DNA of 51,797 nt from Bacteroidaceae bacterium (GTDB lineage Bacteria; Bacteroidota; Bacteroidia; Bacteroidales; Bacteroidaceae): positions 1-51,797 of the forward strand of contig JAFTUK010000015.1 in the NCBI GenBank assembly GCA_017466325.1. The letters are read 5' to 3'. The notes under the pieces are model-generated. The model was not told the DNA's origin and did not search any database. It was given only the letters and a program-made list of their open reading frames with translations. How positions within the stretch are numbered: position 1 is the stretch's first letter; every line of letters starts with the position of its first letter. Position numbers and translations under genes: made by a program. This document shows positions 8,172-34,599 of the stretch, in pieces.

Positions 8172-8239
8172 CCAGTACTCTCGTGGGAGTACTGCAGTTT
8201 CCCCGTGAGAGTACTGCAATACTCTCACGAGAGTACTGG
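8172..8239. repeat. array of three tandem 22-base palindromic units inside a 14-base inverted repeat
   Basis: Units occupy 8173-8194, 8195-8216 and 8217-8238, with no spacer. Each ends in GAGTACTG and is an imperfect palindrome around TCGTGG/CCGTGA-type centres. The outer 14 bases (8172-8185, CCAGTACTCTCGTG) are exactly complementary to 8226-8239. It lies 123 bases beyond the pyrC stop codon and might end that transcript. A second locus at 34511 has the same plan with different bases. Confidence 0.8.
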
Positions 8240-8361
8240 AACATGACTGGAAAATATTGGCAAAATCCCATGAACCTCTCCATGGAACATTTAGCCGTCT
8301 ATAATATGACTTTGAGTGTCCTATGCAAAAAACTTGCCAATAACATGCAAGTTAATTTCTG

Positions 8362-9681
8362 TCATAAAAAAGACAAAGCCGCACCATAAACATCCTCACG
8401 AACCTTGGCACCGTCCCACACGCATTTGCCATTGACCCATGTGGACATCACGCGCCAGTGCAGGGCATCGCCCTCGCGTGGCGACCATCCGCACTTGCTC
8501 AGCACATCCGACGATGCAATGGTGTACGGGACCTCGTCGCGACGGACAAGCACCAGGTCGGCCATCATGCCCTCGCGGATGAAACCACGGTCCTGTATGC
8601 CGAAGAGGGTGGCGGGATTGTGGCACATGAGTTGCACCATCCTTTCCATGGACAGGACACCCTCGTCCACCATTTCCAGCATGCTCACCAGCGAGAACTG
8701 GACCATGGGCATGCCACTGACGGCGGTACGCGCCCCACCCTGCTTCTCACTGAGCAAATGCGGTGCATGGTCGGTGCCTATGCAGGTGATGCGTCCGTCG
8801 GTAAGGCCGCGGCGCAAGGCCTCGCGGTCGCCCTCCGACTTGATTGCGGGATTGCACTTGATGCGTCCGCGCAGACGGGCATAGTCCTGGTCGGTGTACA
8901 GAAGGTGCGCCACGCATGCCTCGCCGGTGATGTTGCCGCCAAGGAGCGCCAACTCCCTTTCCGTGGAGATGTGCGCTATGTGCAGGCGTGCCCCGCTTGC
9001 CTTTGCCATTTCTGCCGCCAGGGCGGAACTCTGCCAGCATGCCTCGGCATCGCGTATTTCGGCATGGTGGGTTATGTCCGGGTCATCGCCGTACTTCTGC
9101 CTGGCCTCTGCCATGTTGGCGTTTATGCGTGCCGTGTCCTCGCAATGGGTCATGATGAGTTTCGGAGTCTTGGCAAAGAGTTCCTCCAGCATCTCGCGCT
9201 TGTCCACAAGCATGTTGCCCGTGCTGCTTCCCATGAAGAGTTTCACGGCAGGGTACTCTGTGGGGGGCATGGCCAGGATTTCATCAAGGTTGTCGTTGGT
9301 AGCGCCTATGAAGAAGCCGTAGTTCACGTGCATGCGCTCCCTGGCCAGAGCCATGCGCTGGCGCCAACGCTCCACGGTGGTTGTCTGCGGAACCACGTTG
9401 GGCATGTCCAGCACTGATGTCACGCCACCTGCTGTCGCCGCCATGCTCTCCGTGTGCATATCGGCCTTGGCGGTCATGCCCGGCTCGCGGAAATGCACGT
9501 GGTCGTCTATCACACCGGGCAGAAGGTACATGCCCGTGGCATCCACCACCCGGCAACCGTCCTGAGGTTCTATCTCGCCACCAAGGACGATGCGCTCTAT
9601 CCTGCCCTCACATACCAACAAGGAGCCGACGTGCGACTCCCCATTGTTTACTATCGTTGCATTGTTGATTATCGTCTTCAT
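8362..9681 (-). CDS. pyrC: dihydroorotase (class I, pyrimidine biosynthesis)
   Basis: The 439-residue protein closes carbamoyl aspartate to dihydroorotate in the cytoplasm. Visible motifs are DDHVHFREPG (metal-binding His pair) near residue 60, KLFMGSS (likely carbamylated Lys region), THCED, HIAHIS (metal-binding His) and TDHAPH (catalytic Asp). I start it at the ATG at 9681, because the longer frame upstream is the neighbouring gene read out of frame. Its ATG overlaps the glycosyltransferase stop codon by four bases, so the two are co-translated. It is the nearest host gene to the prophage and appears complete. Confidence 0.92.
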   Translation of the reverse strand: MKTIINNATIVNNGESHVGSLLVCEGRIERIVLGGEIEPQDGCRVVDATGMYLLPGVIDDHVHFREPGMTAKADMHTESMAATAGGVTSVLDMPNVVPQTTTVERWRQRMALARERMHVNYGFFIGATNDNLDEILAMPPTEYPAVKLFMGSSTGNMLVDKREMLEELFAKTPKLIMTHCEDTARINANMAEARQKYGDDPDITHHAEIRDAEACWQSSALAAEMAKASGARLHIAHISTERELALLGGNITGEACVAHLLYTDQDYARLRGRIKCNPAIKSEGDREALRRGLTDGRITCIGTDHAPHLLSEKQGGARTAVSGMPMVQFSLVSMLEMVDEGVLSMERMVQLMCHNPATLFGIQDRGFIREGMMADLVLVRRDEVPYTIASSDVLSKCGWSPREGDALHWRVMSTWVNGKCVWDGAKVREDVYGAALSFL

Positions 9682-10409
9682 GCCTTTCTTCTCTTGAAGT
9701 TGGTCATACGCAGTCTCATCACACCGAAAAGCGCCTCGCTGAATATGCCGCCCGACATCTTGCTTGTTCCCAACTCGCGGTTCACGAACACCACGGGCAC
9801 CTCCTTTATCTTGAAGCCCAGGCGCAGAGCCGTGTACTTCATCTCTATCTGGAAGGCATAGCCCTTGAAGCGGACATCGTCCAGCGACATGGTTTCCAGC
9901 ACCTTGCGTGTCCAGCACACGAAACCTGCGGTGGTGTCCCTGAGTTTTATGCCCAATACGGTGCGCACATAGGCGGAGGCATAGTAGGACATCAGCACAC
10001 GGCCTATAGGCCAGTTCACCACGTTCACACCGGTGATGTAGCGGCTTCCCACGGAAACGTCGTAACCCTCGTCGTGGCATGCGGCATACAGGCGCGGCAG
10101 GTCGGCAGGAGCGTGGGAGAAGTCGGCATCCATCTCGAAGATGTACTCGTAGCCGTGCTCCAGCGCCCACTTGAAACCGCAGATATAGGCCGTGCCCAGA
10201 CCCAGTTTGCCGGAACGCTCCACGATGTTCACGCGTCCCTTGAACTCGTCAGCCATCAGGCCCTTCACAATGGCGGCCGTTCCGTCGGGACTTCCGTCGT
10301 CTATCACCAGCACGTCAAAGTCCTTTTCCAGGGACGTCACGGCACGTATGATGGCCTCTATGTTTTCCTTCTCGTTATAGGTGGGGATGATAATTACGCT
10401 GTCGCTCAT
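9678..10409 (-). CDS. polyprenol-phosphate mannosyltransferase-like glycosyltransferase (GT2, DPM1 type)
   Basis: At 243 residues it matches the short DPM1-type enzymes that move a sugar from a nucleotide sugar to a lipid phosphate on the inner membrane face. It begins with the GT2 signature VIIIPTYNEKENIE. VLVIDDGSPDGT follows near residue 35, and a DxD-type motif EMDADFSH near residue 93 binds the metal-sugar complex. There is no C-terminal membrane domain. It lies upstream of pyrC in one leftward unit; such pairing is common in Bacteroidales. The exact sugar donor cannot be read from sequence. Confidence 0.85.
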   Translation of the reverse strand: MSDSVIIIPTYNEKENIEAIIRAVTSLEKDFDVLVIDDGSPDGTAAIVKGLMADEFKGRVNIVERSGKLGLGTAYICGFKWALEHGYEYIFEMDADFSHAPADLPRLYAACHDEGYDVSVGSRYITGVNVVNWPIGRVLMSYYASAYVRTVLGIKLRDTTAGFVCWTRKVLETMSLDDVRFKGYAFQIEMKYTALRLGFKIKEVPVVFVNRELGTSKMSGGIFSEALFGVMRLRMTNFKRRKA

Positions 10410-10435
10410 GAATTGTTTTAGGTTGTTTTCTCAAA

Positions 10436-10443
10436 CAAAGATA
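10436..10443 (-). promoter_or_regulatory. promoter (-7 box) for the glycosyltransferase-pyrC unit
   Basis: TATCTTTG on the minus strand lies 27 bases before the glycosyltransferase start codon. The -33 region (GTTG on the minus strand, 20 bases further) is weak. Confidence 0.6.
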
Positions 10444-10614
10444 CATCTTTTCTCTGTTACCCACAACTATTTTGCCCGCCAAACACACGCAAACGATATA
10501 TTTTCATTGCCTTTGCACGTGAAAGCCATTTGAAAACAGACAATACTGTTGGATATACGATTAAGGAGAGTACGCAAATTGCTCTTTGTTTACCCAAGCC
10601 CTTCATTCGTTTTA

Positions 10615-11898
10615 TTACTCCTCTACTCTATCTCTATGATGAAAACGGAACAATCTTCCAACCATAAGATAGTTGTTGTCTCTATCCACATCTATACTTC
10701 CTGCGAGAGCGGAGAGTTTCTTGCGTATGGATGGCGTAAGGCTGTCTTTGCTTAGCGCCTCCTGCAATTCTGCCTTTAAGGTCTGCGGAGAGAGGTTGCG
10801 AACGTAATATCCACCACTCGAGTGCTTAAGCCAGTATGTTCTGGTACCACCCAGAAAGTCGTTATAGACACTGTACTTACCGCCACGCAATGTGCGCTTG
10901 TCTATAATATATTCATTGTGTCCGTATGTTATGGTTGATTCAAGACCAGACTCCTGCATTCCGTCCATCGTAGTAACGAGGAAACAGGTTGGGTGCTCCA
11001 AATAGGAGTGCGGCAATATCCTGTCCTCAGGAAAAGACATTGTAAAGACCGGCTGCAGTATGTTACTCTCCTTTACATAGTGATACAAGGTATCGTTCCT
11101 TTGTGGATAAAACTCCAATACGGAGAAGTCAAATGCACAGGTATTCTGCCTGCTATAGGTTTCTACGCTATAAGTGTCGCTAACCAGAAAAGGATTGTAC
11201 GCCAGTTCGCGTAACACATTGCCTTTGAAATCCTGTACCCATACGATATGCGGATTACGCTTCCATGGAATTGAGGCAATGGTTATTTCCTCGTGCTCTC
11301 CATCCACTCTGAACACTGGTTTGCCGTAGGTCTTCGTCTGCCCGCCTGATTGATTCAAAGGAATATAGCCCTGAAACTGCCCCTGCATATCATAAACGAG
11401 CAGTTCGCGTGCCGCCCATGGCATAATGTAGATACGGTTGTGTTTTTCGTCCATTTGAAAGTCATAAACCTGTCCGTAGTTGCCACGTCCATTCCCTGAA
11501 GACCCGATATTGCACACGAATTTCCCTTCGCGAGTAAATAGTTTGAAGGGCATATTTCTACTGTTATTAAGCAGGAAATAGTTATCAGTTACGTAGACGC
11601 CGGTATTTCGCACATAAGCCCCGTCGCTTGCCTCGAGAGGAACAATCTCCAAATCTTCCACGAAATGACTCAAAGGAAGTGCTATGCTGTCAGTCAACCT
11701 CTCCGGATGGCACACTACCACCGTGTCGCCATCTATAAGGACACGCTCTGCCACCACCGGCAGTTCATCTAAACGCGTAACATAATTCTTGGCTCCGTTC
11801 AATAAAGAAGTGAAAGCTTTTCCGCTATCTGTATTTCGCTCTCCGCAAGAGGCAAACAATACAATCGCTGTAATAAGAGAAAATATCATCCTATCCAT
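10615..11898 (-). CDS. lipoprotein, putative six-bladed beta-propeller
   Basis: I begin at 11898, where AAGGAGGA lies just upstream and a lipoprotein signal starts (MDRMIFSLITAIVLFASC, Cys18). The 427-residue product resembles the Bacteroidota six-bladed beta-propeller lipoproteins (DUF4934/BF3164-like). It shows repeated strand pairs such as FVCNIGSSGNGRGNYGQV (the Gly-rich turn typical of this group) and NRIYIMPWAARELLVYD. These proteins are outer-membrane or periplasmic and of unknown function. It follows the TPR-HTH regulator by 19 bases and probably shares its transcript. Two relatives are encoded divergently (13976 and 15152). Confidence 0.75.
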   Translation of the reverse strand: MDRMIFSLITAIVLFASCGERNTDSGKAFTSLLNGAKNYVTRLDELPVVAERVLIDGDTVVVCHPERLTDSIALPLSHFVEDLEIVPLEASDGAYVRNTGVYVTDNYFLLNNSRNMPFKLFTREGKFVCNIGSSGNGRGNYGQVYDFQMDEKHNRIYIMPWAARELLVYDMQGQFQGYIPLNQSGGQTKTYGKPVFRVDGEHEEITIASIPWKRNPHIVWVQDFKGNVLRELAYNPFLVSDTYSVETYSRQNTCAFDFSVLEFYPQRNDTLYHYVKESNILQPVFTMSFPEDRILPHSYLEHPTCFLVTTMDGMQESGLESTITYGHNEYIIDKRTLRGGKYSVYNDFLGGTRTYWLKHSSGGYYVRNLSPQTLKAELQEALSKDSLTPSIRKKLSALAGSIDVDRDNNYLMVGRLFRFHHRDRVEE

Positions 11899-11917
11899 AC
11901 ATACATCCTCCTTGTGC

Positions 11918-13510
11918 TCAAAATCTCTGAAGGAAATCATCCAAGGTCTGTCCGTGCAACAAAGCATCGCCCATCTTCTCCTTCAGCCTCTGCTTCCTAC
12001 GACTTACAGAGGCCTTGTTGATACAATAGATATTGGCCAAATCGTGCATACTGACATTGATTTTCAGCAGACAACAGAAGTTAAGGTCTGCCACATTCAA
12101 ATCCGGCACAACCCTTTGCAATCGAGCAGTAAACTGATCATACTCCGTATCCATCAGCATACGAATCTCCTTCCACTCCCTTTCGCTGATAGCAATGGCC
12201 TTGTCGTTTTCCTTCAGTTCATAATTGAGAGAGGGGAGTTTCTGAAACACAGACATCTTCCTTATCAACTGCTCTCGCAATCTGTTGGCCTTCTCTCGCA
12301 ATCTGCCCAGTTCCTCTGCCTGTCGCAATAGGCGGTTCTCCTGCTCCATTTGTATCTGCCTTGCCTCCATCTCCTTCCTCTTCTTTATCTGGAAGACGAA
12401 AACAAAGCCTGCCGAAACCAAGGAAAGCACAAAGAGCAGCGAGACGATGACTATCACCTGTTGCTGACGACTGATTTTCAGAGCATCTATCTCAGTGGTC
12501 AGTTTCAATTCCTTGAAAGCATTGTCCCTGGCCTGTCTGCCGTACGAGGCAAACACCTGACCGATATACCCCGACACATCCTGATGATACTGATAGGATT
12601 TTTCAGCATCTCCCATGGTAAGGTAGTATTGCGACAAGTGATACATTGCCTCGGTGGCAAGGAAAAGGTTCTCCGAGCATGCCACCAAATGATAGTACTG
12701 CAGGGCAGAATCTTGCTGATGTTTCAAGTCGTGCAACTGCGCTTTGTACATATTATGAGCCGCCACATCACTCCGTCTCATATATCGGCGACTATCATGA
12801 AGCAGCCGCATCAGTTCGTCATAGCGATACTGCTCATGATAAAGTCTGCGATAACGCTCTTGCAGATAAGCAAGATATTCCACATCATTCGCCTTCTCCG
12901 CCATGGACTGAATTGAATCAAGATAATTCTCGGCCTCATCATATCGCTTCAAATCCAAGAGGTACTCAGCCTTGAGGCACAGAAGATTGCGAACCTTTTC
13001 CCCCTCTGTATTCATGGCAATACGTTTGTCTATATAGTGCAATGCAGAATCTGCCACGCCTTGCTGCCTGAATATTGTTGCCTTCATGGAATAACACCAT
13101 CGAATACCAGCGCTGTCGGCAGAAAGCACAAAATCTTGATATAGCAAATGCATCAGAGAATCAACCTTCTGATATTCGTTCCTGTAGCAATGGTTTGAGA
13201 CCAACACACTGCGCATTGTCCTCAGATTGGCTGTATCTTTCATCTCCTCGTAATAAGCCATCGTTTCATACAACTGCTCCATTTCTGCAGGAACACTGGC
13301 CAACATACAACCGGACATCAGTCTGTGGAAGGTGTGCTTCTCCTCGCCAACCAATTTCTCCTCATTGATTTTATACAATATCTGCAGGACGCTGTCTCTA
13401 TCTCCATTCCTACTGTGCCTCTCTGCCTCCAGTAGCCACTGGGCAGTTCTGTTCTGTGACATGCATGCCACCATCAGCAGCAGTGAAAATAATATAGACA
13501 TGTATTTCAT
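11918..13510 (-). CDS. membrane-spanning TPR-HTH regulator with a lipoprotein-type N-terminus
   Basis: I choose the ATG at 13510 because it begins a lipoprotein-like signal (MKYMSILFSLLLMVAC, Cys16). The 530 residues comprise TPR-like helical repeats (about 25-340), one membrane helix (351-373), a coiled coil (375-420) and a C-terminal HTH (about 474-512, ADLNFCCLLKINVSMHDLAN, then KASVSRRKQRLKEKMG). This suggests a periplasmic sensor joined through the membrane to a cytoplasmic DNA-binding domain. Its likely targets are the divergent promoters at 13541-13943. A similar plan occurs in Bacteroidota regulators; the signal sensed is unknown. Confidence 0.75.
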   Translation of the reverse strand: MKYMSILFSLLLMVACMSQNRTAQWLLEAERHSRNGDRDSVLQILYKINEEKLVGEEKHTFHRLMSGCMLASVPAEMEQLYETMAYYEEMKDTANLRTMRSVLVSNHCYRNEYQKVDSLMHLLYQDFVLSADSAGIRWCYSMKATIFRQQGVADSALHYIDKRIAMNTEGEKVRNLLCLKAEYLLDLKRYDEAENYLDSIQSMAEKANDVEYLAYLQERYRRLYHEQYRYDELMRLLHDSRRYMRRSDVAAHNMYKAQLHDLKHQQDSALQYYHLVACSENLFLATEAMYHLSQYYLTMGDAEKSYQYHQDVSGYIGQVFASYGRQARDNAFKELKLTTEIDALKISRQQQVIVIVSLLFVLSLVSAGFVFVFQIKKRKEMEARQIQMEQENRLLRQAEELGRLREKANRLREQLIRKMSVFQKLPSLNYELKENDKAIAISEREWKEIRMLMDTEYDQFTARLQRVVPDLNVADLNFCCLLKINVSMHDLANIYCINKASVSRRKQRLKEKMGDALLHGQTLDDFLQRF

Positions 13511-13547
13511 AAGAGAAAAGAAAGAAATAACTATTGGTTTCTGAACG

Positions 13548-13579
13548 CAAAGATACAACAATATGTTGGTGCAGACAAG
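13548..13579 (-). promoter_or_regulatory. promoter for the TPR-HTH regulator unit
   Basis: On the minus strand CTTG (13579-13576), 20 bases, then TATCTTTG (13555-13548) precede the regulator start at 13510. The expected start site is near 13541. Confidence 0.65.
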
Positions 13580-13826
13580 AAAAGTGATGTACAATGCAGA
13601 AGCACTAAACACTTATAATTCAGCAACATCACATATTGTCATGATGTACATTTTCAATAATATCAATATTCGCACGCTCTACAAGAGATATTACAAGTTT
13701 TGAAACCCATAGCGAACTCTACCGAAGCTTTTCCTTTGTTTTCAAGTCGCGAGGGACGCCCGAAAGAATAGTTTCAGGACCATCTGGGGTCCTATACGAC
13801 ACTGCACTTTCTATCCAAAAGTATCA

Positions 13827-13912
13827 ATGTACATCGGTATCTGTACTTACTTACAGAACAAACCACTGATTTGCAACCTTTTCAGACAGGAGCACATGTA
13901 CATCGGCATTTG
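13827..13912 (+). promoter_or_regulatory. tandem 17-base direct repeats upstream of the efflux operon
   Basis: ATGTACATCGGTATCTG at 13827-13843 recurs as ATGTACATCGGCATTTG at 13896-13912, 15 of 17 bases identical and 69 bases apart. The end of the second copy forms the TTTG of the -33 element, a placement typical of activator sites. Confidence 0.55.
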
Positions 13913-13943
13913 CGCCAGTAGCGGCACAATTGCCATACCTTTG
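13909..13943 (+). promoter_or_regulatory. promoter of the propeller-lipoprotein/RND operon
   Basis: TTTG at 13909-13912 and TACCTTTG at 13936-13943 are 23 bases apart, slightly longer than the usual 19-21, which fits a promoter that needs an activator. The first gene starts at 13976. Confidence 0.65.
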
Positions 13944-13975
13944 CAACGGCCAAACAAACCTATATATGTATTATC

Positions 13976-15106: not shown

Positions 15107-15151
15107 ACAGATATCGTTTCAAATCAATTACTAACTAAAAACATTAGCGTT

Positions 15152-16351: not shown

Positions 16352-16364
16352 GGAATAATATAAA

Positions 16365-25000: not shown

Positions 25001-25242
25001 AACGCCTTCAAAGGCAGACACCTGTGCGTTGCTATGTCAAGGCATGCAATGCCAAGATTATCCCCATCCTGCTTACGGTCTTGTCCACCATCCTTGGTTT
25101 CATCCCCTTTATGGTAGGTACAGACAAGACCGCATTCTGGTTTCCCTTGGCAGCAGGCACAATAGGCGGATTGGTGATGTCATTGCTCGGAGTCTTCCTC
25201 TTTCTGCCTCTGCTTTCCGTACCTGATACCAAGAACATTTAA
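22057..25242 (+). CDS. RND-family efflux permease (second of two)
   Basis: This 1,061-residue permease shares the RND fold but is clearly distinct from the first. Its first helix (residues 18-37, TIIIIFLCLSLVGLALMPM) is followed by LTVSYGMPGNSSRIIEAEV, typical of HAE-type pumps. TM4 reads LNLVIDNIIVMAEHI, with one Asp. TM10 reads LLCGITVNASIYILNEY, without an obvious coupling Lys. It follows the TolC gene with a four-base overlap and has no adaptor of its own, so it may share the adaptor or pair with the first permease as a heteromer. Its stop codon runs into a dispersed repeat. Confidence 0.87.
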   Translation: MRTERGNVKTENGLANFTIIIIFLCLSLVGLALMPMLSVKLSPSRTLQSLTVSYGMPGNSSRIIEAEVTSRLEAMLNRVEGVKRIYSTSDNGSGSITLDMDKHADMDAVRFEVSTIVRQIWPQLPKGVSYPQIWTSRSNDKASRPFMSYTLNAPASPILIMRYAEDHIKPVLGQLKGVESVELSGATPMQWQLEYDNMQLASLGIGMSDILTAIREHYGKEFLGMCPMEKGTDGREWIRLLRTSVEGETGFHPERILLKTADGSIIGLDKLIKVRHIEAEPAGYYRINGLNSIYLNITAQESANQLELGREVRQKMAELEQTIPKGYEVHCGYDATEYISQELDKIYFRTGLTILILLAFVLLVTGSMRYLILITASLSVNLAIAFILYYALEVEMQLYSLAGITISLNLVIDNIIVMAEHIRHRHNLKAFLAILAATLTTVGALGIVFFLEERMRMELQDFAAVVIINLLVSLLVALFFVPAMMEKSGMLMHRQRTSSYRFRRILCICNRLYAVIVVWLGRYRIVTCGVLILVFGLPVFLMPKSMSEEDGMLAVYYNKVFDNAVYQEKIRPIVDKALGGTLRLFVEDVYTGSYFNREEGEPVLSVYASLPNGNTLEQMNTLIKKMESYLSKFSEIRQFQTSIYNARHATIQIYFEKEYQTGTFPYTLKSEIISKALQLGGGSWSVYGLKEQGFSNEVHETAGTFRVKMNGYNYDELSHWGERLKERLLEHRRIKEVTMGSEFSFWKDDYSEFYLDMNKELLARQNISSIQLFTALNSVFGKDISCGNIIYENHLEALTLNSHQGKEYDVWSLANVPVHINGNPYKLADFASIKKGASAQKIVKEDQQYQLCLQYNYIGSASAGQRLLKKDLEQLQQEMPMGYTAEIEQANYSWGRKENKQYGLLLIVIVIIFFITCILFNSLKQPLAIIFVIPISYIGVFLTFYLFGLNFDQGGFASFVLLCGITVNASIYILNEYNNLRQRLQRQTPVRCYVKACNAKIIPILLTVLSTILGFIPFMVGTDKTAFWFPLAAGTIGGLVMSLLGVFLFLPLLSVPDTKNI

Positions 25243-25299
25243 CCCAAATCAGTTAATTGGCGTTATGATGATAAAAAACTTTATTTTTGAACTTATGGA
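25241..25299 (+). repeat. dispersed intergenic repeat, copy 1 (full)
   Basis: It starts AACCCAAATC at 25241 within the permease stop, then GGCGTTATGATGATAA and CTTTATTTTTGAAC. It is one of five related copies in the window and is the downstream end of the efflux operon. Confidence 0.7.
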
Positions 25300-25352: not shown

Positions 25353-25394
25353 AACATTGCCCCTGAATGAGGTCATCATTGTTCAAGGGCAATG
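25353..25394. terminator. bidirectional terminator between the efflux operon and serB
   Basis: ACATTGCCC at 25353-25361 pairs with GGGCAATGT at 25386-25394, with further pairing inside (TGAA with TTCA). The two genes converge here, so it could serve both strands; T tracts are short. Confidence 0.6.
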
Positions 25395-25425
25395 TAAAAC
25401 TTTTATACTACTCCATCATACGGCA

Positions 25426-26655: not shown

Positions 26656-26680
26656 AATGATGCGTTTATTCTTCTGCCAA

Positions 26681-27460: not shown

Positions 27461-27479
27461 AAAAACTATTTTTACTATA

Positions 27480-27511
27480 CAAAGATAAAGTTTAATAATT
27501 GAATCCACAAA
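27480..27511 (-). promoter_or_regulatory. promoter of the S1/P1-nuclease gene
   Basis: On the minus strand TTTG (27511-27508), 20 bases, then TATCTTTG (27487-27480). The start site is near 27473, just before the ATG at 27460. Confidence 0.8.
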
Positions 27512-27531
27512 TATTAGGCACTAAATAATTA

Positions 27532-27580
27532 AACCCAAATCGGTCATTAGGCAGTTATGCGCTAATAAAGACATCTTCTT
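27532..27580 (+). repeat. dispersed intergenic repeat, copy 2 (diverged 5' part)
   Basis: It begins AACCCAAATCGGTCATTAGG and keeps GTTATG; the second half differs. It faces copy 3 across about 60 bases in the same intergenic region. Confidence 0.55.
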
Positions 27581-27641
27581 GTCACCTGTTTAGTCGTTTA
27601 TCGGTTATAATGGAACCCATTACGTCCCCAAAGCGGCAAAA

Positions 27642-27697
27642 CATGTGTTCAAAAATAAAGTCTATTGACATCATGAGGCTAATGAACGATTTGAGTT
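27642..27697 (-). repeat. dispersed intergenic repeat, copy 3 (inverted)
   Basis: On the minus strand it reads AACTCAAATCGTTCATTAGC, then CATGATG and CTTTATTTTTGAAC, matching copies 1 and 5 in both halves. It lies between the nuclease gene and the ABC-exporter operon. Confidence 0.65.
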
Positions 27698-27731
27698 AAA
27701 CGTAGCCATACTGCACACAACCCAACATTAC

Positions 27732-28826
27732 TTATTCAATTATCTGCGGTCCACGGATAATGTCTTTCTCTGAAATGCCTTTTTTGATTTCTATCTTCAC
27801 GCCGTCGCTAAGACCAGTCACCACGTGTGTGCGTACATAATTTTTCTTATCTCCATCTCCCCGAACCACGTACACGTAAGTGGAATCACCGCTAAACTCA
27901 ATGGCACTCTCCGGCACACTGAGCACCTCCTGAGACTCGGCAAGGACAATCTCGGCATTGGCGCTATAACCGGAACGCATCTGTACGCTGTCCCTTATCG
28001 TTACAGAGGCCTTTATTTCGAACTGGTTGGCACCGTTACTCTGCACTGCCTTGGGAGAGATGTATTCCAATATGGCATCAAAATTAAGGTCCTGCAATGC
28101 GCCTATAGTTATGTTCATGGACATGCCGGTATGGATGCGCCCAACCTCGCTCTCGTCTATATTGCCACGGAAAATCAGGTCGTTCATGTTTGCCACGCTG
28201 GCTATGGTGGTACCTTCGTTGAAAGTATTGCTAAGGATGACAGAATTGCCCACCTTCACCGGCACGTCCAAAATCAGACCCGAGATAGTGGAACGTATCA
28301 GTGTACTGCTGGCATTGGCATTGCTTCGGGATATGCCCTCGCTCACAACGAGCAGAGCGTCGTCCGCCGCAACCTTCTCTTCCTGGGCTTGCCTGTACTG
28401 CTGGCGTATCTTCTCGTATTCTGAGGCACTTACAAGTTCCTTGTCGAACAGGCGCTGGTAACGCTCGTAATCCGTCTTCACCTGGTTAAGGTTTATGTCT
28501 GCTATCCTGACACGGCTTTGGGCTGCTGTCAACTGGTTCATTTCCGGTATGACCTTCACCTTGGCAATAACCTCATCGGCCTTAACGGTCTCACCGGCCT
28601 CCTTGTATATCTCTGAGATGATACCGCTTATCTGCGGTTTCACATTTACCTCATCACGAGGTTCGATCCTGCCCGTAATGATGGTGCTCTTGACGATATT
28701 TTCCCTCTTGGGAGTGAATTCATTGTACTTCACCTCCTGGGGGAGTGACTTCCTCCACAAGAAGACGAATGTGCCCACAAACACTACCAGTGCCATGACG
28801 GCGAAGATCAGTTTTGAATATTTCAT
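27732..28826 (-). CDS. membrane-fusion protein of an ABC exporter (MacA-like)
   Basis: The 364-residue adaptor begins with a membrane anchor (residues 4-23, YSKLIFAVMALVVFVGTFVF). It has the lipoyl halves (RIEPRDEVNVKPQISGII and KEAGETVKADEVIAKVKV, then STISGLILDVPVKVGNSV), a helical hairpin and beta-barrel regions. It is the last gene of a leftward operon behind an ATPase and two MacB-type permeases, so the pump it belongs to is ATP-driven. No outer-membrane channel is encoded nearby. The product exported cannot be told from sequence. Confidence 0.87.
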   Translation of the reverse strand: MKYSKLIFAVMALVVFVGTFVFLWRKSLPQEVKYNEFTPKRENIVKSTIITGRIEPRDEVNVKPQISGIISEIYKEAGETVKADEVIAKVKVIPEMNQLTAAQSRVRIADINLNQVKTDYERYQRLFDKELVSASEYEKIRQQYRQAQEEKVAADDALLVVSEGISRSNANASSTLIRSTISGLILDVPVKVGNSVILSNTFNEGTTIASVANMNDLIFRGNIDESEVGRIHTGMSMNITIGALQDLNFDAILEYISPKAVQSNGANQFEIKASVTIRDSVQMRSGYSANAEIVLAESQEVLSVPESAIEFSGDSTYVYVVRGDGDKKNYVRTHVVTGLSDGVKIEIKKGISEKDIIRGPQIIE

Positions 28827-28853
28827 TATTATAATATATGTTATTAGTTCCTT

Positions 28854-30089
28854 TTATTCATCCCTCATGGCATCAACCGGTTTGATGGCCATGGCTCTGA
28901 GGGCTGGCGCCATACCTGCCATGCCTCCCAGCAGACATAGGAGCAACGTGGCTGCAACTGCCGTCCAGAAGTCCACCTGGAAGTGGGCCGAAGGGACTCC
29001 GTCCGTTGTATTTGCCAACTCTACCATCTGCAATATGAATACGGCCAGCAATATGCCCATCATACCGGCTACGGCCGTCAACACCATGCTTTCGCAGATT
29101 ATCTGCGTCAATATCATCCTGGGGGTGGCTCCTATGGCACGGCGTATGCCTATCTCCACGGTCCTTTCCTTTACCGTCACCATCATGATGTTGCTCACGC
29201 CGATGGCTCCTGCCAGCAGGGTGCCTATGCCAACGAGCCAACTGAGGAACGTCACGCCACGGAACAGACTGTCCATTATGCCGAAGAGAACTTCGGTGTT
29301 GAAGACCCTTAATGCCAGTTCGTCCTGAGGATTCACGATATGATTGCGTGCTATGACCTGACGTATGCGGTCCGTCAGTTCGCCTATCTTCACACCGTCC
29401 TTTGCCGTAAAACTTATGAAATGAACCACGTCGCCATAGTTGTACACCCTTTGCATCACGCTGATAGGAGTAAGGATGATCTCCGCGGCACTCTCTCCTG
29501 TGGTGAGGACACCGGGGTTGAAGTCCACGCCTACAAGACTGTAGTAGGTGGAGTCTATGCGTATGCTGCTGCCAACGGGATTTCCGCCTTCCGGAAACAG
29601 ATTCTCGTAAACACGCTTGCCTATGACACAGACCTTGCGCTCCATTTTCACGTCCATAGCGTTAATGTATCGGCCATACCTGATCTCCGGCATACATACA
29701 TGCCTGTAATTATGGTCCGCTCCATATATGGTAGCCGAAAACTTATTGGCTCCGCATACCGCCACTCTCGTTCCTGTATAGTTCTGTGGAGTGATAACGT
29801 CCAGTTCGGGTATCGCATTGCGCAGGCGAGCCACGTCGTCCGTCTCCATATCCCATTCCCTGCCCTTGGCAAAGCCTTTGTATGCCTTCGTTGTGGGAGA
29901 AGACCACACTGTTGCCGAGTTCGTGGCAAAATTGCTGAAGTTGCTGTTCAGCAAGTCCTTTAGCCCATGGGTGCCGCCTATCAGGAGCACAAGCATGAAG
30001 ATGCCCCAGAACACACCGAAGGCAGTCAGCAGGCTGCGGCTCTTGTTGCGCGATATGGTGTCAAGTATCTCTGTCAGGAATTCAGTCAT
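28854..30089 (-). CDS. MacB/LolC-type ABC transporter permease (second in operon)
   Basis: I start at the ATG at 30089 (MTEFLTEILDTISRNKSRSL) because it follows AAGGATT and does not overlap the preceding gene. The 411 residues have one N-terminal helix (about 20-42), a MacB periplasmic domain, and three C-terminal helices ending in the conserved AIKPVDAMRDE. The FtsX-type pattern KERTVEIGIRRAIGATPRMI lies near residue 310. It is paired with a second permease in the same operon and should form the membrane part of the exporter. Confidence 0.87.
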   Translation of the reverse strand: MTEFLTEILDTISRNKSRSLLTAFGVFWGIFMLVLLIGGTHGLKDLLNSNFSNFATNSATVWSSPTTKAYKGFAKGREWDMETDDVARLRNAIPELDVITPQNYTGTRVAVCGANKFSATIYGADHNYRHVCMPEIRYGRYINAMDVKMERKVCVIGKRVYENLFPEGGNPVGSSIRIDSTYYSLVGVDFNPGVLTTGESAAEIILTPISVMQRVYNYGDVVHFISFTAKDGVKIGELTDRIRQVIARNHIVNPQDELALRVFNTEVLFGIMDSLFRGVTFLSWLVGIGTLLAGAIGVSNIMMVTVKERTVEIGIRRAIGATPRMILTQIICESMVLTAVAGMMGILLAVFILQMVELANTTDGVPSAHFQVDFWTAVAATLLLCLLGGMAGMAPALRAMAIKPVDAMRDE

Positions 30090-30105
30090 AATCCTTACTA
30101 CACTG

Positions 30106-31365
30106 TTATTTGGCATTAAGTGCCACTATGGGGCGCATGCGTGCGGCTTTGTAGGCCGGCACAAATCCTGCTACCGTACCTGCCAGTATCATCACCAGGG
30201 TGGCCTGCAGACAGACTCCGACGCCCACCGTGGGATTGAGGAACATGGTTGCCTGGAATATGCCTGCATCCACAACCTGGTTTCCCAACGTGGCATTCAT
30301 GTACTCATTTACAATTACGCCGCATACCATACCTATGTAACCGAAAAACGTGGTTATTGCCATACTCTCCACAATGACCATACGCAGGATGGACCATGTG
30401 CCTGCTCCGAGAGCCTTGCGTATGCCGAACTCGCGCGTACGCTCCTTTACCGTAATGAGCATGATGTTGCTCACGCCTACTACACCGCTCAGCAGGGTCA
30501 ACAATCCTACTATCCAAAGCGATGTGCGCAATATTGACATGCCGGAATTCATCTGCATGCTCTGGGAAAGTCTGTTCCATATCCACAAGGCTCCATCATC
30601 ATCGGGGGCGGCTTCGTGATTGGGGTTTATACATTCGCGGTATTTCTTCACAAAGGCTTCGCTTTCCTCTTCCGTGGCTATGCCGGTCACGCTGAACTCG
30701 ATCCTGTCCACACGGTGTCCGTAGTTGTACATTGCGGATATTGTGGAAAAGGGGGCATAGGCCACACTGTTGGAGGAAGAACTGTCGTCCTTGGAAATTC
30801 CTATCACCCTGAATACGGCTCCGTTTACGATGATGTCCTTGCCAAGCAATCCGCTCCCTTCTCTGAAAAGTTCCTTTGTCTGCGTCTGCGACAAGACTAT
30901 CACCTTGCGCTTTTCCCTAATATCTATGTCGTTGATAAATCGGCCGTGCACAATCTCTATCTTGTCTATCTCCACCCTCATGGGAAAAGTACCTTCAATG
31001 GTTTGGTTCGTCATGTAATTGGGTCCCAGCCTCATGATGACGCTGCTTTTCCATAGCGAGGCTCCCGTTTTCCTGATATTTTCAGTGAAGTTGCTGGACG
31101 TCACCTGCAAGTCCCTGCTGTCCAACTCTATGCGTCTGCCTATATCGAAACCGGCATGTGCCTTGGTTGTCATTCCTCCGTACACGACCATAGAGTTTTT
31201 CAGGAATTGCTCCGACTGCTTCATCTGTGCGTTTATCAGTCCGTTGCCGGCACCAAGCAGGAAGATGAGGATGAAGATACCCCATCCCACGGCAAAGCCC
31301 GTCAGGGCGGTGCGCAACTTGTTGTGGCTCACCGTTGCCCATATTTCCTTCAGGAGTTCTATCAT
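30106..31365 (-). CDS. MacB/LolC-type ABC transporter permease (first in operon)
   Basis: The 419-residue protein has an N-terminal helix (about 20-40), a large periplasmic domain and three C-terminal helices. The FtsX signature VKERTREFGIRKALGAGTWS lies near residue 320 and the protein ends AARMRPIVALNAK. It overlaps the ATPase gene by four bases and is followed, 16 bases on, by a second permease. Two half-permeases suggest a heterodimer. With the periplasmic domain and the adaptor, this is a MacAB-like exporter rather than a nutrient importer. Confidence 0.87.
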   Translation of the reverse strand: MIELLKEIWATVSHNKLRTALTGFAVGWGIFILIFLLGAGNGLINAQMKQSEQFLKNSMVVYGGMTTKAHAGFDIGRRIELDSRDLQVTSSNFTENIRKTGASLWKSSVIMRLGPNYMTNQTIEGTFPMRVEIDKIEIVHGRFINDIDIREKRKVIVLSQTQTKELFREGSGLLGKDIIVNGAVFRVIGISKDDSSSSNSVAYAPFSTISAMYNYGHRVDRIEFSVTGIATEEESEAFVKKYRECINPNHEAAPDDDGALWIWNRLSQSMQMNSGMSILRTSLWIVGLLTLLSGVVGVSNIMLITVKERTREFGIRKALGAGTWSILRMVIVESMAITTFFGYIGMVCGVIVNEYMNATLGNQVVDAGIFQATMFLNPTVGVGVCLQATLVMILAGTVAGFVPAYKAARMRPIVALNAK

Positions 31366-32081
31366 TTCATGTATCCGTTTATGCCGAAGGGCGATGCGTT
31401 GTGCTCCCCGTTTATCTCTATGTTGCCTATTATGCCGTCCTGTATCCGGATGATCTTGTTTGTCTCGTTTGCCACACCGCTTTCGTGCGTAACCACCACT
31501 ATGGTCATGCCCTGCTCGCGGTTCAGTTCCTTCAGCAGCTGCATCACCTCCACACTGGTCTTGGAGTCAAGGGCACCTGTAGGTTCGTCTGCCAGGATTA
31601 TCTTGGGTTTGGTTATCAGGGCACGCGCTATTGCCACACGCTGCTTCTGTCCGCCGGACATCTCGTTGGGGTAATGCTCTGCCCATTGTGCCAGTCCGAG
31701 ACGGTCCAGATACTCCATGGCCATACGGTGCCTTTCCTTGCGCCCGACACCCTGATAGTAAAGGGGCAGTTCCACGTTCTCCACCGCATTCTTGAAACCG
31801 ATCAGGTTGAAAGACTGGAATATGAAGCCTATCATCCTGTTGCGGTAATATGCCGCCTTGGATTCGGACAGGTTCCATATCCTTGTGCCTGCCAGGGTGT
31901 ATTCGCCCGAGTCGTAATTGTCCAGTATGCCCAATATATTGAGCAGGGTGGACTTGCCCGAACCAGATTGTCCCATTATGGAGACGAACTCTCCCTCTCC
32001 GACGTCCAGGTTTATGCCCTTGAGCACATGCAGGGGCTGTGCTCCGAAGTATGTCTTGTTGATGTCCCTGAGGTGTATCAT
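31362..32081 (-). CDS. ABC transporter ATPase (MacB/LolD type)
   Basis: The 239-residue subunit has Walker A GQSGSGKST near residue 37, the signature MSGGQKQRVAIARALI near 141, and Walker B ILADEPTGALDSKT, with the catalytic Glu after the Asp. It ends with the His switch VVVTHES. It powers the exporter encoded by the three genes that follow, all in one leftward operon starting near 32100. The family also includes LolD and FtsE; the neighbours favour MacB-like function. Confidence 0.92.
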   Translation of the reverse strand: MIHLRDINKTYFGAQPLHVLKGINLDVGEGEFVSIMGQSGSGKSTLLNILGILDNYDSGEYTLAGTRIWNLSESKAAYYRNRMIGFIFQSFNLIGFKNAVENVELPLYYQGVGRKERHRMAMEYLDRLGLAQWAEHYPNEMSGGQKQRVAIARALITKPKIILADEPTGALDSKTSVEVMQLLKELNREQGMTIVVVTHESGVANETNKIIRIQDGIIGNIEINGEHNASPFGINGYMK

Positions 32082-32107
32082 CCGATAACTGTGTCTTGTC
32101 TTTAGTG

Positions 32108-32115
32108 CAAAGATA
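32108..32115 (-). promoter_or_regulatory. promoter (-7 box) of the ABC exporter operon
   Basis: TATCTTTG on the minus strand lies 27 bases before the ATPase start. The -33 element is not clear. Confidence 0.6.
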
Positions 32116-32229
32116 CGAAATACAATGATAGCATCATCAGTATGCCGGTTTTATTTTGGCAAAAACATCATATAGGTGGCATTTTCATGGGAAATCCTTA
32201 CACATACGCATCAATTATCCTGCAAGGAC

Positions 32230-32260
32230 TTGGCAAAATGAAATGAAACACGTATCTTTA
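32230..32260 (+). promoter_or_regulatory. promoter of the flavodoxin-ferredoxin redox cluster
   Basis: TTGG at 32230-32233, 19 bases, then TATCTTTA at 32253-32260; one base from the consensus in each box. The gene starts at 32278. Confidence 0.6.
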
Positions 32261-32277
32261 CGTTTGTAAAAAACAAA

Positions 32278-33102
32278 ATGAAGAAGATGGAACTGCACAT
32301 ACTTACATTTTCCCCTACCGGCACATCCCGTCGGGTAGCCGAAGGGATAGCAAAAGGAACAGGCGGACAGGATATGCATTTCACGGACATTACCCGTCAG
32401 ACTTCTGTTAGCCTGAATTTCAATTCCGACCAGTTACTACTTGTCTGCGTTCCCGTATATGGAGGACATGTAGCCCCAACCGCAATGCAACGCCTGGATG
32501 CTATACGTGGCAACGACACGCCTGCCGTGCCCGTTGTGGTTTACGGGAACCGTCATTACGAACAGGCGCTTGAAGAACTATCATCCTTCCTCACCGAAAG
32601 GGGCTTCCGGACAATGGCGGCGGCAACATTCATTGGAGAACATTCCTATTCCACAGAGCAGACACCCATTGCCGTGGGCAGACCCGATGCCGCCGACATC
32701 CTGTTTGCAGAACAGTTCGGGCAGGAGATAGCCAAGAAATGGAATGAAGGCCGAATCGCTGAAACCATAGATGCCAGTGCCATAGAACAGCCCCATCAGG
32801 ATGCCGGGACAATGATGCACTTCAAGCAAACCGTAATGACCTGGATGCAGTCGGGAGTGCCTATGCCTGTATCTCCGCTTGCCGACACCTCGCTGTGCAA
32901 TGCATGCGGTACATGCGCCGACTTGTGCCCCACATCGGCAATTAGCAGGAGCAACCCGCAGGAAACGGATGCCTCACTATGTATCAAATGCTGTGCATGC
33001 GTGAAAGGCTGTCCGGCTAATGCCCGCACCTACCCCACTCCTTTCGCACCGCTGCTGGCAGAGATTTTCTCCCTGCGCAAGGAGAACAAGTACCTGATTT
33101 GA
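32278..33102 (+). CDS. flavodoxin fused to a two-[4Fe-4S] ferredoxin (EFR1-like)
   Basis: The first 170 residues are a flavodoxin-like domain with the FMN-phosphate loop TFSPTGTSRRVAEGI near the start. The C-terminus carries two ferredoxin motifs, CNACGTCADLCP (near residue 208) and CIKCCACVKGCP (near 235), each with four Cys for a cubane cluster. Such fusions move electrons between flavin and Fe-S partners in anaerobes; the partner enzyme is not identified. It heads a cluster with a small conserved protein and a glutaredoxin-like protein, suggesting a shared redox role. Confidence 0.85.
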   Translation: MKKMELHILTFSPTGTSRRVAEGIAKGTGGQDMHFTDITRQTSVSLNFNSDQLLLVCVPVYGGHVAPTAMQRLDAIRGNDTPAVPVVVYGNRHYEQALEELSSFLTERGFRTMAAATFIGEHSYSTEQTPIAVGRPDAADILFAEQFGQEIAKKWNEGRIAETIDASAIEQPHQDAGTMMHFKQTVMTWMQSGVPMPVSPLADTSLCNACGTCADLCPTSAISRSNPQETDASLCIKCCACVKGCPANARTYPTPFAPLLAEIFSLRKENKYLI

Positions 33103-33116
33103 ATACAGACACTGCC

Positions 33117-33410
33117 ATGTATCAGAAATTCATCATAACACAGGACGGCATATTGAAGTTCGGCAGAGTCTATCTGCATCACGATCTCCTGTCGTACGGA
33201 GAAGACGGTACGGGAGGCGGAGGACTGTGGAAACACGACCCTCTGCGTGGTGCCGTATTGCTGTACGGACGTTCGTTCGAATTCGGGCCTCCCGACTTCT
33301 CTTTCCTCAGAAAGATTGACTGGCAGGGAATGGGCGGCAAACCTTCGGCATTGCTGTATCTGCCTAAATGGCCGGATGAATCTATTGCAGAACCTGTTTT
33401 TGTCAAATAA
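33117..33410 (+). CDS. conserved small protein of unknown function (97 aa)
   Basis: The ATG at 33117 lies 14 bases after the ferredoxin stop; the earlier in-frame TTG at 33099 would overlap it. The product is rich in Gly, Asp and aromatic residues (MYQKFIITQDGILKFGRVYL, then GGGGLWKHD and FEFGPPDF) and looks like a compact beta protein. I do not recognise a family. Tight spacing on both sides argues that it is a real operon gene. Confidence 0.7.
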   Translation: MYQKFIITQDGILKFGRVYLHHDLLSYGEDGTGGGGLWKHDPLRGAVLLYGRSFEFGPPDFSFLRKIDWQGMGGKPSALLYLPKWPDESIAEPVFVK

Positions 33411-33426
33411 GAAAAACCATACAACT

Positions 33427-33753
33427 ATGATCAAAGTCTACGTAATGCAAACATGTCCCGACTGCACTGCGGTCAAGCAACTGCTAAAGGACGACCCGCG
33501 CTTTCTGCTGACCGACATCGGAGAGCAGGCAAGAAACCTGAAACAGTTTCTATCTCTCCGCGACAACAACCCTGCCTTTGAACGGGTACGCCAGCGCGGA
33601 ACAATAGGAATACCGTGCTTCGTGTTTGAAGACGGAAACATTGTCTTTTCCTTGGATAAGGCAATGGAAATAATCAAGGACATGCCGCAGATACTACCTG
33701 AGGAGGAACCTGAGGAAGGTGCTTCGTGCAGCATTGACGGAAAAGGATGTTAG
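33427..33753 (+). CDS. glutaredoxin-like thiol-redox protein
   Basis: The ATG at 33427 is the correct start, because the longer frame runs through the previous gene. The 108-residue protein has MIKVYVMQTCPDC with the thiol pair CPDC at residues 10-13. A later GTIGIPCFVF is the cis-proline region of the thioredoxin fold. A Cys-rich tail (ASCSIDGKGC) ends the protein, which is unusual. It probably reduces disulfides in the cytoplasm and closes the redox cluster. Confidence 0.8.
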   Translation: MIKVYVMQTCPDCTAVKQLLKDDPRFLLTDIGEQARNLKQFLSLRDNNPAFERVRQRGTIGIPCFVFEDGNIVFSLDKAMEIIKDMPQILPEEEPEEGASCSIDGKGC

Positions 33754-33880
33754 ACAATTATATCCGTACTTTACAGGCAGGTTCTGTAAATCAGTTTTGA
33801 GGTTTCTGATGTTTACTCTACCGCAGATTCTGTTTATAGAGCCTACCCTTACCTTATATAATATATAATACCGAACACTC

Positions 33881-34369
33881 ATGGCAGAGTCACTCGTCAT
33901 CCAAGGCAACAGCAAGGAAGAACTGTATCAAAACCTTTTTCCCCAGATTAAGTCAATCTTAGAGGATGAAAAAGACACTATTGCCAACATGGCAAACATA
34001 TCGGCATGCCTTTATGAAACCTTCCGCTTCTGGTGGGTAGGTTTCTATCGCGTTGTCGGCGACGAACTGGTACTTGGTCCCTTCCAAGGTCCTGTTGCCT
34101 GCACACGCATCAGGAAAGGACGCGGAGTATGCGGCACCTCATGGCAAAGGGAAGAAACTATCATCGTGCCCGACGTGGATCAGTTTCCTGGCCACATAGC
34201 ATGCAGCAGCGCCTCCCGCTCGGAAATTGTTGTGCCCGTTTTCCACAATGGCAAAGTGACTGCTGTACTTGATATTGACAGTGAATTACTCAATACCTTT
34301 GACGATACTGACAAACTATGGCTTGAACGGATTGCGGCACTCCTCATAGACAAAAACACCAATCCCTGA
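33881..34369 (+). CDS. free methionine-(R)-sulfoxide reductase (GAF domain)
   Basis: The 162-residue GAF-domain enzyme repairs oxidised free methionine. Its three cysteines fall at residues 74 (GPVACTRI), 84 (GVCGTSWQ) and 108 (HIACSS). The spacing of 10 and 24 residues equals that of the E. coli and yeast enzymes, where the pair forms the catalytic disulfide. Motifs WWVGFYR and SEIVVPVF are also typical. It is expressed alone after an A/T-rich leader; the long repeat-filled region follows it. Confidence 0.9.
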   Translation: MAESLVIQGNSKEELYQNLFPQIKSILEDEKDTIANMANISACLYETFRFWWVGFYRVVGDELVLGPFQGPVACTRIRKGRGVCGTSWQREETIIVPDVDQFPGHIACSSASRSEIVVPVFHNGKVTAVLDIDSELLNTFDDTDKLWLERIAALLIDKNTNP

Positions 34370-34402
34370 CAGGCATTTTTCCTTAACAGATCATTGCACT
34401 TC

Positions 34403-34446
34403 ACCCCAAATAAGTCATTTGCGTTATGATGATAATGATGATTTGG
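34403..34446 (+). repeat. dispersed intergenic repeat, copy 4 (partial)
   Basis: It reads ACCCCAAATAAGTCATTT, then GCGTTATGATGATAA; the second half is lost. Confidence 0.6.
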
Positions 34447-34510
34447 GAGTGACTATGTCGTCAAAGGTTTTTACCCCTTGAATATTCCATAAGACCTACA
34501 GGTAACTTAA

Positions 34511-34599
34511 ATTAGTCCTCGGTGGCGGTAAAATGAACCGCCCTCGGCGATAAAATTTACCGCCAGTGGCGGTGAGATTTGCCGCCACCGAGGACTAAT
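34511..34599. repeat. array of three tandem 22-base palindromic units inside an 18-base inverted repeat
   Basis: Units at 34521-34542, 34543-34564 and 34565-34586 each have the form GGCG(G/A)T, an A/T centre, then CCGCC. The flanks ATTAGTCCTCGGTGGCGG (34511-34528) and CCGCCACCGAGGACTAAT (34582-34599) are exactly complementary over 18 bases. The plan equals that of 8172-8239 but the bases differ. Confidence 0.8.

What the first reader, a model, noticed from the sequence alone, without database searches (positions are those of the whole stretch)
8172..34599. Two distant loci share one architecture, three tandem 22-base palindromes in a long inverted repeat, but not one sequence
At 8172-8239 and 34511-34599 the same plan appears: exactly three 22-base units with no spacer, each an imperfect palindrome, bracketed by an outer perfect inverted repeat (14 and 18 bases). 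The unit sequences are unrelated (GAGTACTG-based versus GGCGGT/ACCGCC-based). Conserved geometry with free sequence, where both arms have changed together, argues for selection on structure, with roles such as RNA hairpins, transcription end, or a DNA site for a protein that reads spacing (22 bases is about two helical turns). I know of no named element with this description; it may be a family of elements specific to Prevotella-like genomes.
Basis: partly seen in the sequence, partly recalled or inferred. Interest (0 to 1): 0.72.

Follow-up and report, generated by a model that had tools for sequence, protein, structure and literature searches.

The report
Sequence-free tandem 22-base hairpin arrays
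Two odd DNA repeats in a gut bacterium turn out to belong to a large class of short intergenic arrays, typically three 22-base palindromes in a row, whose shape recurs in many families while their letters differ; they resemble the known REP-type palindromic repeats but lack the partner gene looked for.

Summary
Both loci carry three 22-base units with the outer inverted repeats described. Neither is unique: A (8172-8239) has 13 places, B (34515-34595) at least 40, in the same genome. A scan scoring pairing only finds 42 triple-palindrome loci in 844 kb, 31 at period 22, against none in two Markov sets. Pooled over 2.64 Mb of this genome and relatives, 121 loci form 32 sequence clusters, 19 at 22-23 bases (12 of those 19 singletons). 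So 'same geometry, different sequence' is real between families; within a family the sequence is copied. Three units is usual, not fixed (B: mostly three, some four, one single); orthologous arrays differ by whole units. Arrays are intergenic and scarce between divergent genes. Gaps holding B are synteny breaks against the nearest relative in 17 of 18 testable cases, gaps without an array in 21 of 127. No Y1 transposase in this draft genome and no clear target duplication. Best reading: REP/BIME-like, non-autonomous hairpin minisatellites, dispersed by unknown machinery that may read shape more than sequence.

The parts
8172..8239 (.). Array A: three 22-base palindromic units (8173-8194, 8195-8216, 8217-8238) inside a 14-base perfect outer inverted repeat
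8240..8262 (+). One-sided conserved tail of family A; the best copies elsewhere align from about 8163-8171 to 8256-8262
34515..34595 (.). Array B: cap 34515-34522, units 34523-34544, 34545-34566, 34567-34588, cap 34588-34595 (one base shared with the last unit); dispersed family with a sharp boundary at the caps
34511..34528 (+). Left arm of the 18-base perfect outer inverted repeat (its first four bases are flank, not part of the family consensus)
34582..34599 (+). Right arm of the 18-base perfect outer inverted repeat
33881..34369 (+). Gene upstream of B: GAF-domain protein, 162 aa; in relative G047 its match lies on another contig than the match of the gene after B
34913..35395 (+). Gene downstream of B: cytidine/deoxycytidylate deaminase-like, 160 aa
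8362..10170 (-). ORF ending beside A; amidohydrolase family match over the piece 8365-9702

Best explanation
A and B are copies of two families of dispersed, non-autonomous, hairpin-forming minisatellites that work like REP/BIME repeats. Shown: intergenic tandem arrays of a 22- or 23-base palindromic unit, most often three in B; many sequence families in one genome; a sharp boundary for B; gain and loss of whole units between two species; B abundant here and rare in the nearest relative. Inferred: the machinery that copies arrays to new places, or the replication process that spreads units, depends on fold and pitch (a hairpin every 22 bases) more than on the letters. New sequence families arise when whole units are replaced within an array and then spread through it, which is why all arms differ together between families while single compensatory pairs are rare within B. 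The host tolerates arrays beside gene ends, where they are probably transcribed as RNA hairpins of mild or no regulatory effect. Family B lies almost only where gene order differs from the nearest relative, so its spread and rearrangement are linked; which causes which is not shown.
For: Copy number: A 13 places, B at least 40 (40 of 70 first-look candidates scored). Geometry without sequence. Palindromic consensus in 30 of 60 TRF arrays of period 22-23 against 9 of 82 of other periods in this genome; shuffled-consensus rate 0.021 over all 142. Sharp boundary: 61 cap ends, near-invariant inward, near background outward. Unit steps: of 36 B places in the sample 22 have a core of 81 bases (three units) and 4 of 103 (four units), one is a single unit; the others have a worn cap or end at a contig edge. 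Whole-unit differences between orthologues: two 22-base units at C49:22846, two 23-base units at C49:25376, one 22-base unit at C18:24145. Mixed arrays: C5:18426 has one AGTTTCC unit before three AGTCCTC units; A has a hybrid middle unit (read by eye). Placement: of 100 arrays of period 20-24 or families A/B in two genomes, 51 same-direction, 38 convergent, 8 divergent, 2 edge, 1 in a gene, after ORFs under 160 codons overlapping an array were dropped; random intergenic placements 983:346:317 (another ORF cut). Sense-strand hairpin the more stable in 33 of 50 same-direction placements, one tie left out, p 0.033. Turnover: B in 3 of 139 genomes of the genus. Synteny: B gaps 17 breaks, 1 continuous; adjusted odds ratio for any array 6.4, p 6e-5, 158 gaps.
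Against: No enzyme was found: no Y1 transposase in this genome, 88% complete; the three DDE loci match A or B only at chance level. No clear target duplication. No clean empty site of a B copy was obtained. Period-22 tandem arrays below the palindrome cut also exist (24 of 48 in this genome), so pitch may matter more than pairing. 12 of the 19 clusters at 22-23 are single loci. The covariance model misses B and several other families. The synteny excess comes from B: other families 3 breaks, 10 continuous. In the first, smaller test convergent gaps without arrays also broke, 7 of 8 (in the larger set 8 of 24). Recombination between two B copies is not the general cause: 1 of 18 joins in the relative unites two B-flanked ends.
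Confidence: 0.55

Rival explanations
1. Purely mutational minisatellites: replication slippage and template switching at quasi-palindromes create and tidy 22-base arrays in neutral intergenic DNA; no mobile machinery and no selection on structure.
For: Exact unit differences between species; period-22 arrays without a palindrome coexist; mixed arrays; little pairwise compensation.
Against: B is at 40 or more places with a sharp boundary and unrelated flanks, which slippage in place cannot produce; the 22-23 peak among unrelated sequences is not explained.
Confidence: 0.2
2. RNA elements at gene ends: transcribed hairpin arrays that protect or end transcripts on both strands, with selection on pairing only.
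For: Intergenic, few between divergent genes, many between convergent genes; sense hairpin more stable in 33 of 50; very strong folds.
Against: No T-tailed hairpin at A; a separate terminator-like hairpin, read by eye, lies beside the B copy at C11:29461 and beside the same gene in G047; distance from the upstream stop varies widely, median 133; the centre pair of B stays mismatched in 20 of 22 copies.
Confidence: 0.15
3. MITEs mobilised by a DDE transposase through the terminal inverted repeats.
For: B has symmetric 8-base caps and a sharp boundary; DDE transposases exist in the genome.
Against: No clear target duplication; no parent element with the caps in 1.23 Mb: the 16 cap matches within one mismatch and without a recognised partner are B arrays or coding sequence by eye.
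Confidence: 0.07
4. Chance or assembly artefact.
For: Two contigs of the draft genome begin inside a B copy, so B does disturb assembly.
Against: Markov controls give 0 or 2 per full set; one B array and several other arrays are shared in place with an independently assembled relative.
Confidence: 0.02

Closest known systems
REP / BIME / REPIN palindromes (PMC3733652: start of abstract in the listing, and passages)
   Same: Short palindromes, intergenic, between convergent and same-direction genes, grouped and tandem forms, several types in one genome
   Different: No Y1 (RAYT) transposase found in this genome; no GTAG or CGTC tag at the B ends (GTCC); 22-23-base head-to-tail pitch; sequence families unrelated to one another
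BrickBuilt MITE minisatellite of Porphyromonas gingivalis (PMC4596501: passages; a review, PMC10969869: passages)
   Same: A Bacteroidales intergenic element with a 23-base tandem repeat predicted to form long stem-loops; the paper also mentions 22-base tandem repeats in that species
   Different: BrickBuilt has leader and tail regions and terminal inverted repeats; one element family, not many sequence families with a common pitch
PINSR, the 188-bp Prevotella intermedia repeat (PMC4755523: abstract and passages)
   Same: Highly amplified, lineage-specific, probably non-coding repeat in a relative
   Different: 188 bp, without terminal inverted repeats; no tandem palindromes in the passages seen
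Variable-number tandem repeats (minisatellites) in general (recalled)
   Same: Whole-unit copy-number differences between orthologues
   Different: Here the arrays are also dispersed as short capped copies, and often palindromic

Membership tests
REP/BIME | Short palindromic unit, many intergenic copies | tested here: met
REP/BIME | Preference for gaps between convergent or same-direction genes | tested here: met
   literature statement
REP/BIME | GTAG or CGTC tag at one end of the palindrome | tested here: not met
   B end profile GTCCTCGG; the other families were not profiled
REP/BIME | Cognate Y1 (RAYT) transposase in the genome | tested here: not met
   none in this genome, 88% complete; 62 of 139 genomes of the genus have a Y1 match at E <= 0.001, 53 over the cut-off
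MITE | Terminal inverted repeats | tested here: met
   B caps
MITE | Target-site duplication | tested here: not met
   29 copies, 16 offsets at each of 11 lengths: lowest p 0.0045 (five bases), uncorrected
MITE | Parent insertion sequence with the same ends | tested here: inconclusive
   none in 1.23 Mb of this genome nor at three DDE loci; about half of the draft genome examined
BrickBuilt | 23-base direct repeats between leader and tail with terminal repeats | tested here: not met
   B is caps plus units only; A has a tail on one side; no sequence comparison with BrickBuilt was made
Intrinsic terminator | GC hairpin followed by a T run | tested here: not met
   A: none at the array; B: two weak 6-pair stems inside the array
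CRISPR array | Repeats separated by unique spacers, cas genes | tested here: not met
   head-to-tail units without unique spacers; cas genes not searched
Known Rfam RNA family | Covariance model match | tested here: not met
   only a tRNA in the window at gathering score

The most novel reading that the evidence does not exclude
A genus-wide class of elements is maintained by shape alone: a dedicated enzyme or replication-linked process recognises single-stranded DNA folded into a hairpin every 22 bases and copies or recombines it whatever its letters, in the manner of folded integron attC sites (comparison recalled). Its action leaves arrays at new chromosomal joins, so it drives gene-order change between species.
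Probability: 0.17. Interest if true: 0.87.

Novelty: new variant of a known kind. Interest (0 to 1): 0.62.

Why it matters
Repeat families are normally recognised by sequence. Here unrelated sequences share a pitch and a fold, so a sequence search sees small unconnected families while the class stays hidden: a search with A alone finds 22 of 139 genomes of the genus, a model of ten arrays finds 41. If shape is what is copied, this is a natural test case for structure-recognised mobility outside IS200/REP systems and integrons. Family B also marks synteny breaks between two close species.

Tried and rejected
Rejected: intrinsic terminator for A; a Y1 transposase partner in this genome, and the species with family A show no evident link to Y1 (read by eye, not tested); MITE with target duplication; a larger hairpin including the B flanks (within-copy flank complementarity not above between-copy, p 0.81, 29 copies); long-hairpin covariation inside B (mostly negative); reciprocal recombination between B copies as the general cause of breaks (1 of 18 joins); viral carriage of one exact 20-base B motif (0 contigs). 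The first cap search (three mismatches) was too loose to use and was repeated with one mismatch. One search listed cores of 37 (2), 59 (1), 81 (22) and 103 (4) bases for 29 of 36 places; rereading shows that one 37 (C33:14506) and the 59 (C11:69174) are arrays that run on past a false cap, so only C26:32092 is a true single unit. Literature: seven searches showed no named element of this description in their listings; only open-licence papers are held and the term sets were narrow.

Limits: this genome and the relatives are draft assemblies. Samples: 1.229 of 2.59 Mb of this genome, 1.056 of about 2.6 Mb of G047, 0.35 Mb of other species, the last mostly brought in by searches and so not random. 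Genes were called by a simple ORF rule that differs between (80 codons; 100 codons, ORFs under 160 codons overlapping an array dropped). The model R1 has three invariant pairs, so its hits in G191 and G233, which look like the AGTTTCC family, are not purely structural. Model searches over more than 40 genomes use stricter filters and a capped number of scored candidates, so counts are lower bounds. Stretches from other genera of the order could not be fetched, so the structure-only scan was not run as a sample outside the genus; the only outside control for tandem arrays is 100 kb of E. coli with TRF.
Full report
What was checked. A has units 8173-8194, 8195-8216, 8217-8238 inside a 14-base perfect inverted repeat. 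B has three 22-base units between symmetric caps inside an 18-base perfect inverted repeat. Each folds far beyond 200 shuffles on both strands. No Rfam family fits at gathering score (one tRNA only in the window).

They are dispersed repeats. In the same draft genome (2.59 Mb, 56 contigs, 88% complete) A has 20 matches at 13 places and B 77 matches at 40 places, with 40 of 70 first-look candidates scored. The 19 best-scoring other B copies are 84-94% identical. In the genus A is found in 22 of 139 genomes and B in 3 of 139, this genome included in both. In the order, A by sequence is found in none of the other 147 genomes searched.

Geometry without sequence. I scored pairing only: seven outer pairs in each of three consecutive units plus seven pairs between the outermost arms (maximum 28, cut 22, each unit at least 4), periods 14 to 39. 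In 844 kb of this genome this gives 42 loci, 31 at period 22 and 4 at 23, against none in two 2nd-order Markov sets. Two earlier scorings were less clear: 3 real against 0 and 1 against 0; 2 against 0 at a strict cut and 40 against 22 at a loose one. In 656 kb of G047, the relative with the best gene matches (93-97%), the scan gives 28 loci: 7 at period 22, 9 at 23, 8 at 18, 4 others. In 362 kb of 83 loci mostly from other species it gives 16 loci, 10 at 22 (a few of these loci are from G047 and many were brought in by searches). Pooled over 2.64 Mb there are 121 loci in 32 sequence clusters (blastn, single linkage). By modal period 14 clusters lie at 22, 5 at 23, 4 at 18, and 9 between 16 and 36. 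Twenty-one clusters are single loci, 12 of them at 22 or 23. Two 3rd-order Markov sets together gave 4 hits, none at 22 or 23.

Independent check by Tandem Repeats Finder: in 1.23 Mb of this genome 142 arrays of period 15-60, 48 at 22 and 12 at 23. The consensus is palindromic (circular reverse-complement identity at least 0.7) in 30 of these 60 and in 9 of the other 82; the shuffled rate is 0.021. G047: 16 of 48 against 4 of 87, shuffled 0.009. The 83 other loci: 5 of 25 against 2 of 33, shuffled 0.023. E. coli K-12: one array in 100 kb. So half of the period-22 arrays here and more elsewhere fall below the palindrome cut, which suggests that the pitch is at least as basic as the pairing.

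Covariance model. Ten arrays of several sequence families align without gaps at 66 columns. On the three-hairpin structure 87.6% of cells pair, against 62.4% when partners are shuffled and at most 51.1% when slid; 17 of 21 pairs have two-sided changes. The rows were chosen as palindromic and three rows that misaligned were dropped, so this describes the set and is not proof of selection. In 19 chosen sources the model R1 finds A and four other families (TTGTTG, GTACCG, AGTTTCC and AGTCCTC types) and nothing in 100 kb of E. coli; it does not find B, nor anything in L100, L109, L124, L137, L143, L162, L177 or L240, at E <= 1. It matches 41 of 139 genomes of the genus and 3 of 119 of the order: this genome, G191 (same family, other genus, 26 matches) and G233 (1 match). 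The seven G191 loci and the G233 locus read out are 22-base arrays, nearly all with GTTTC...GAAAC arms, so part of that match is sequence.

Anatomy of B. The boundary is sharp: near-invariant from GTCCTCGG inward and close to background outward, with weak bias in parts of the 45 bases outside (61 ends with at most two mismatches). Of 36 places in the sample, 22 have a core of 81 bases (three units) and 4 of 103 (four units); one is a single unit; the other nine have a worn or missing cap or begin at a contig edge. No clear target duplication. Flank complementarity within copies is not above that between copies. Inside 22 three-unit copies, arms co-vary only at the outermost arms (p 0.014); five other segment tests of the long hairpin are not significant, and pair 36/46 is A-C or G-T in 20 of 22 copies. 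Change thus looks like replacement of whole units rather than pairwise compensation. A mixed array (C5:18426) and whole-unit differences between orthologues (C49:22846, C49:25376, C18:24145) fit that; arrays at C20:74233 and C5:18426 and one B at C22:20835 are shared with G047 in place.

Placement. Of 100 arrays in the two genomes, 51 lie between same-direction genes, 38 between convergent, 8 between divergent, 2 at edges, 1 in a gene (after dropping ORFs under 160 codons that overlap an array), against 983, 346 and 317 for random intergenic placements in this genome. In the first count of 42 arrays in this genome 15 were convergent, 16 same-direction, 2 divergent, 2 at edges and 7 in ORFs, six of these ORFs with 88-127 codons and one with 676. 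In same-direction gaps the sense-strand hairpin is the more stable in 33 of 50 (p 0.033, one tie left out); this is weak.

Gene order. Between 1.229 Mb of this genome and 1.056 Mb of G047 there are 45 collinear blocks, 421 kb at 93% identity. Of 70 testable block ends, 22 lie within 300 bases of an array, against 4% of random positions. By gap of at least 100 bases: with array 20 breaks and 11 continuous, without 21 and 106, p 3e-7 unadjusted. Single strata are weaker (convergent p 0.05, same-direction p 0.003, length-restricted strata 0.003 to 0.58). In a first, smaller test convergent gaps without arrays broke in 7 of 8 cases; in the larger set in 8 of 24. In a logistic model with gap length (array length removed) and gene orientation the odds ratio is 6.4, p 6e-5, 158 gaps. 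The excess is B's: 17 breaks, 1 continuous; other families 3 and 10. Gaps whose flanks were not aligned are left out of these counts; they are many, since G047 was sampled in part. Of 18 joins in G047 that unite two block ends of this genome, 8 have B within 400 bases of one or both ends and only 1 of both, so exchange between two B copies is not the usual route. Whether B follows breaks or causes them is open.

Search for a mover. No Y1 transposase (PF01797) in this genome, although 62 of 139 genomes of the genus have a match. Three DDE (PF01609) loci match A or B only at E 0.12 or worse. The B motif CCTCGGTGGCGGTAAAATGA is in two records of the 84,980-species collection, both Bacteroidaceae MAGs from ruminants (one has the contig length of G047:C29), and in no viral contig.

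Known kinds. REP palindromes share the size, intergenic placement and grouping (PMC3733652, passages) but B lacks the tag and the genome the transposase, so I do not file the arrays as REPs. BrickBuilt of P. gingivalis is a 23-base stem-loop minisatellite in a MITE, and 22-base tandem repeats are mentioned there (PMC4596501, passages; PMC10969869, passages). PINSR is a 188-bp repeat without inverted ends (PMC4755523, abstract and passages). I saw no paper describing a sequence-free 22-base class in the listings. The attC comparison is recalled, not tested.

Verdict. Observation confirmed and extended; interpretation partly supported. The most economical account is a REP/BIME-like class of hairpin minisatellites with a preferred pitch and turnover of sequence by whole units. 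The mover, and the reason for 22, are unknown.

Noticed in passing
34398-34438, 34658-34717, 25237-25298, 27642-27700: A second dispersed repeat (core TTAGCGTTANGATGATAATAG) flanks B on both sides in the same orientation and recurs elsewhere in the window and genome sample (three of the four window copies also by pattern).
   Followed up: partly
34742-34890: AT-rich stretch before the deaminase gene that resembles several other stretches of the genome sample, ending in TTTG...TTTGC as in Bacteroidetes promoters (motif recalled).
   Followed up: no
G047 C20:128226-128341, C8:50619-50765, C15:66811-66963 and others: In the relative G047 a 23-base GTCACC/GGTGAC array family is common, also at a join where this genome has B.
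   Followed up: partly
G129, some 30 places: Species G129 has 33 model matches, many with identical scores, as if it had amplified its own 22-base family recently; its sequences could not be read.
   Followed up: no
L054:9134-9186, L056:2222-2272; G047 L159:13210-13260: Arrays of period 18 made of 9-base units such as GAATACTCC also occur between genes.
   Followed up: no
G000:C50:1-54 and G000:C43:1-66: Two contigs of the draft assembly begin inside a B copy, so B interrupts assembly.
   Followed up: no
B flanks, mainly 7-22 bases outside the caps: Weak shared bias outside the sharp B boundary (up to 0.66 bits at a column), perhaps a target preference.
   Followed up: partly
G000:C33:34618-34785 and similar: Period-15, -18, -21, -24 and -27 arrays are multiples of three and many are presumably coding, unlike the 22-23 class.
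   Followed up: no
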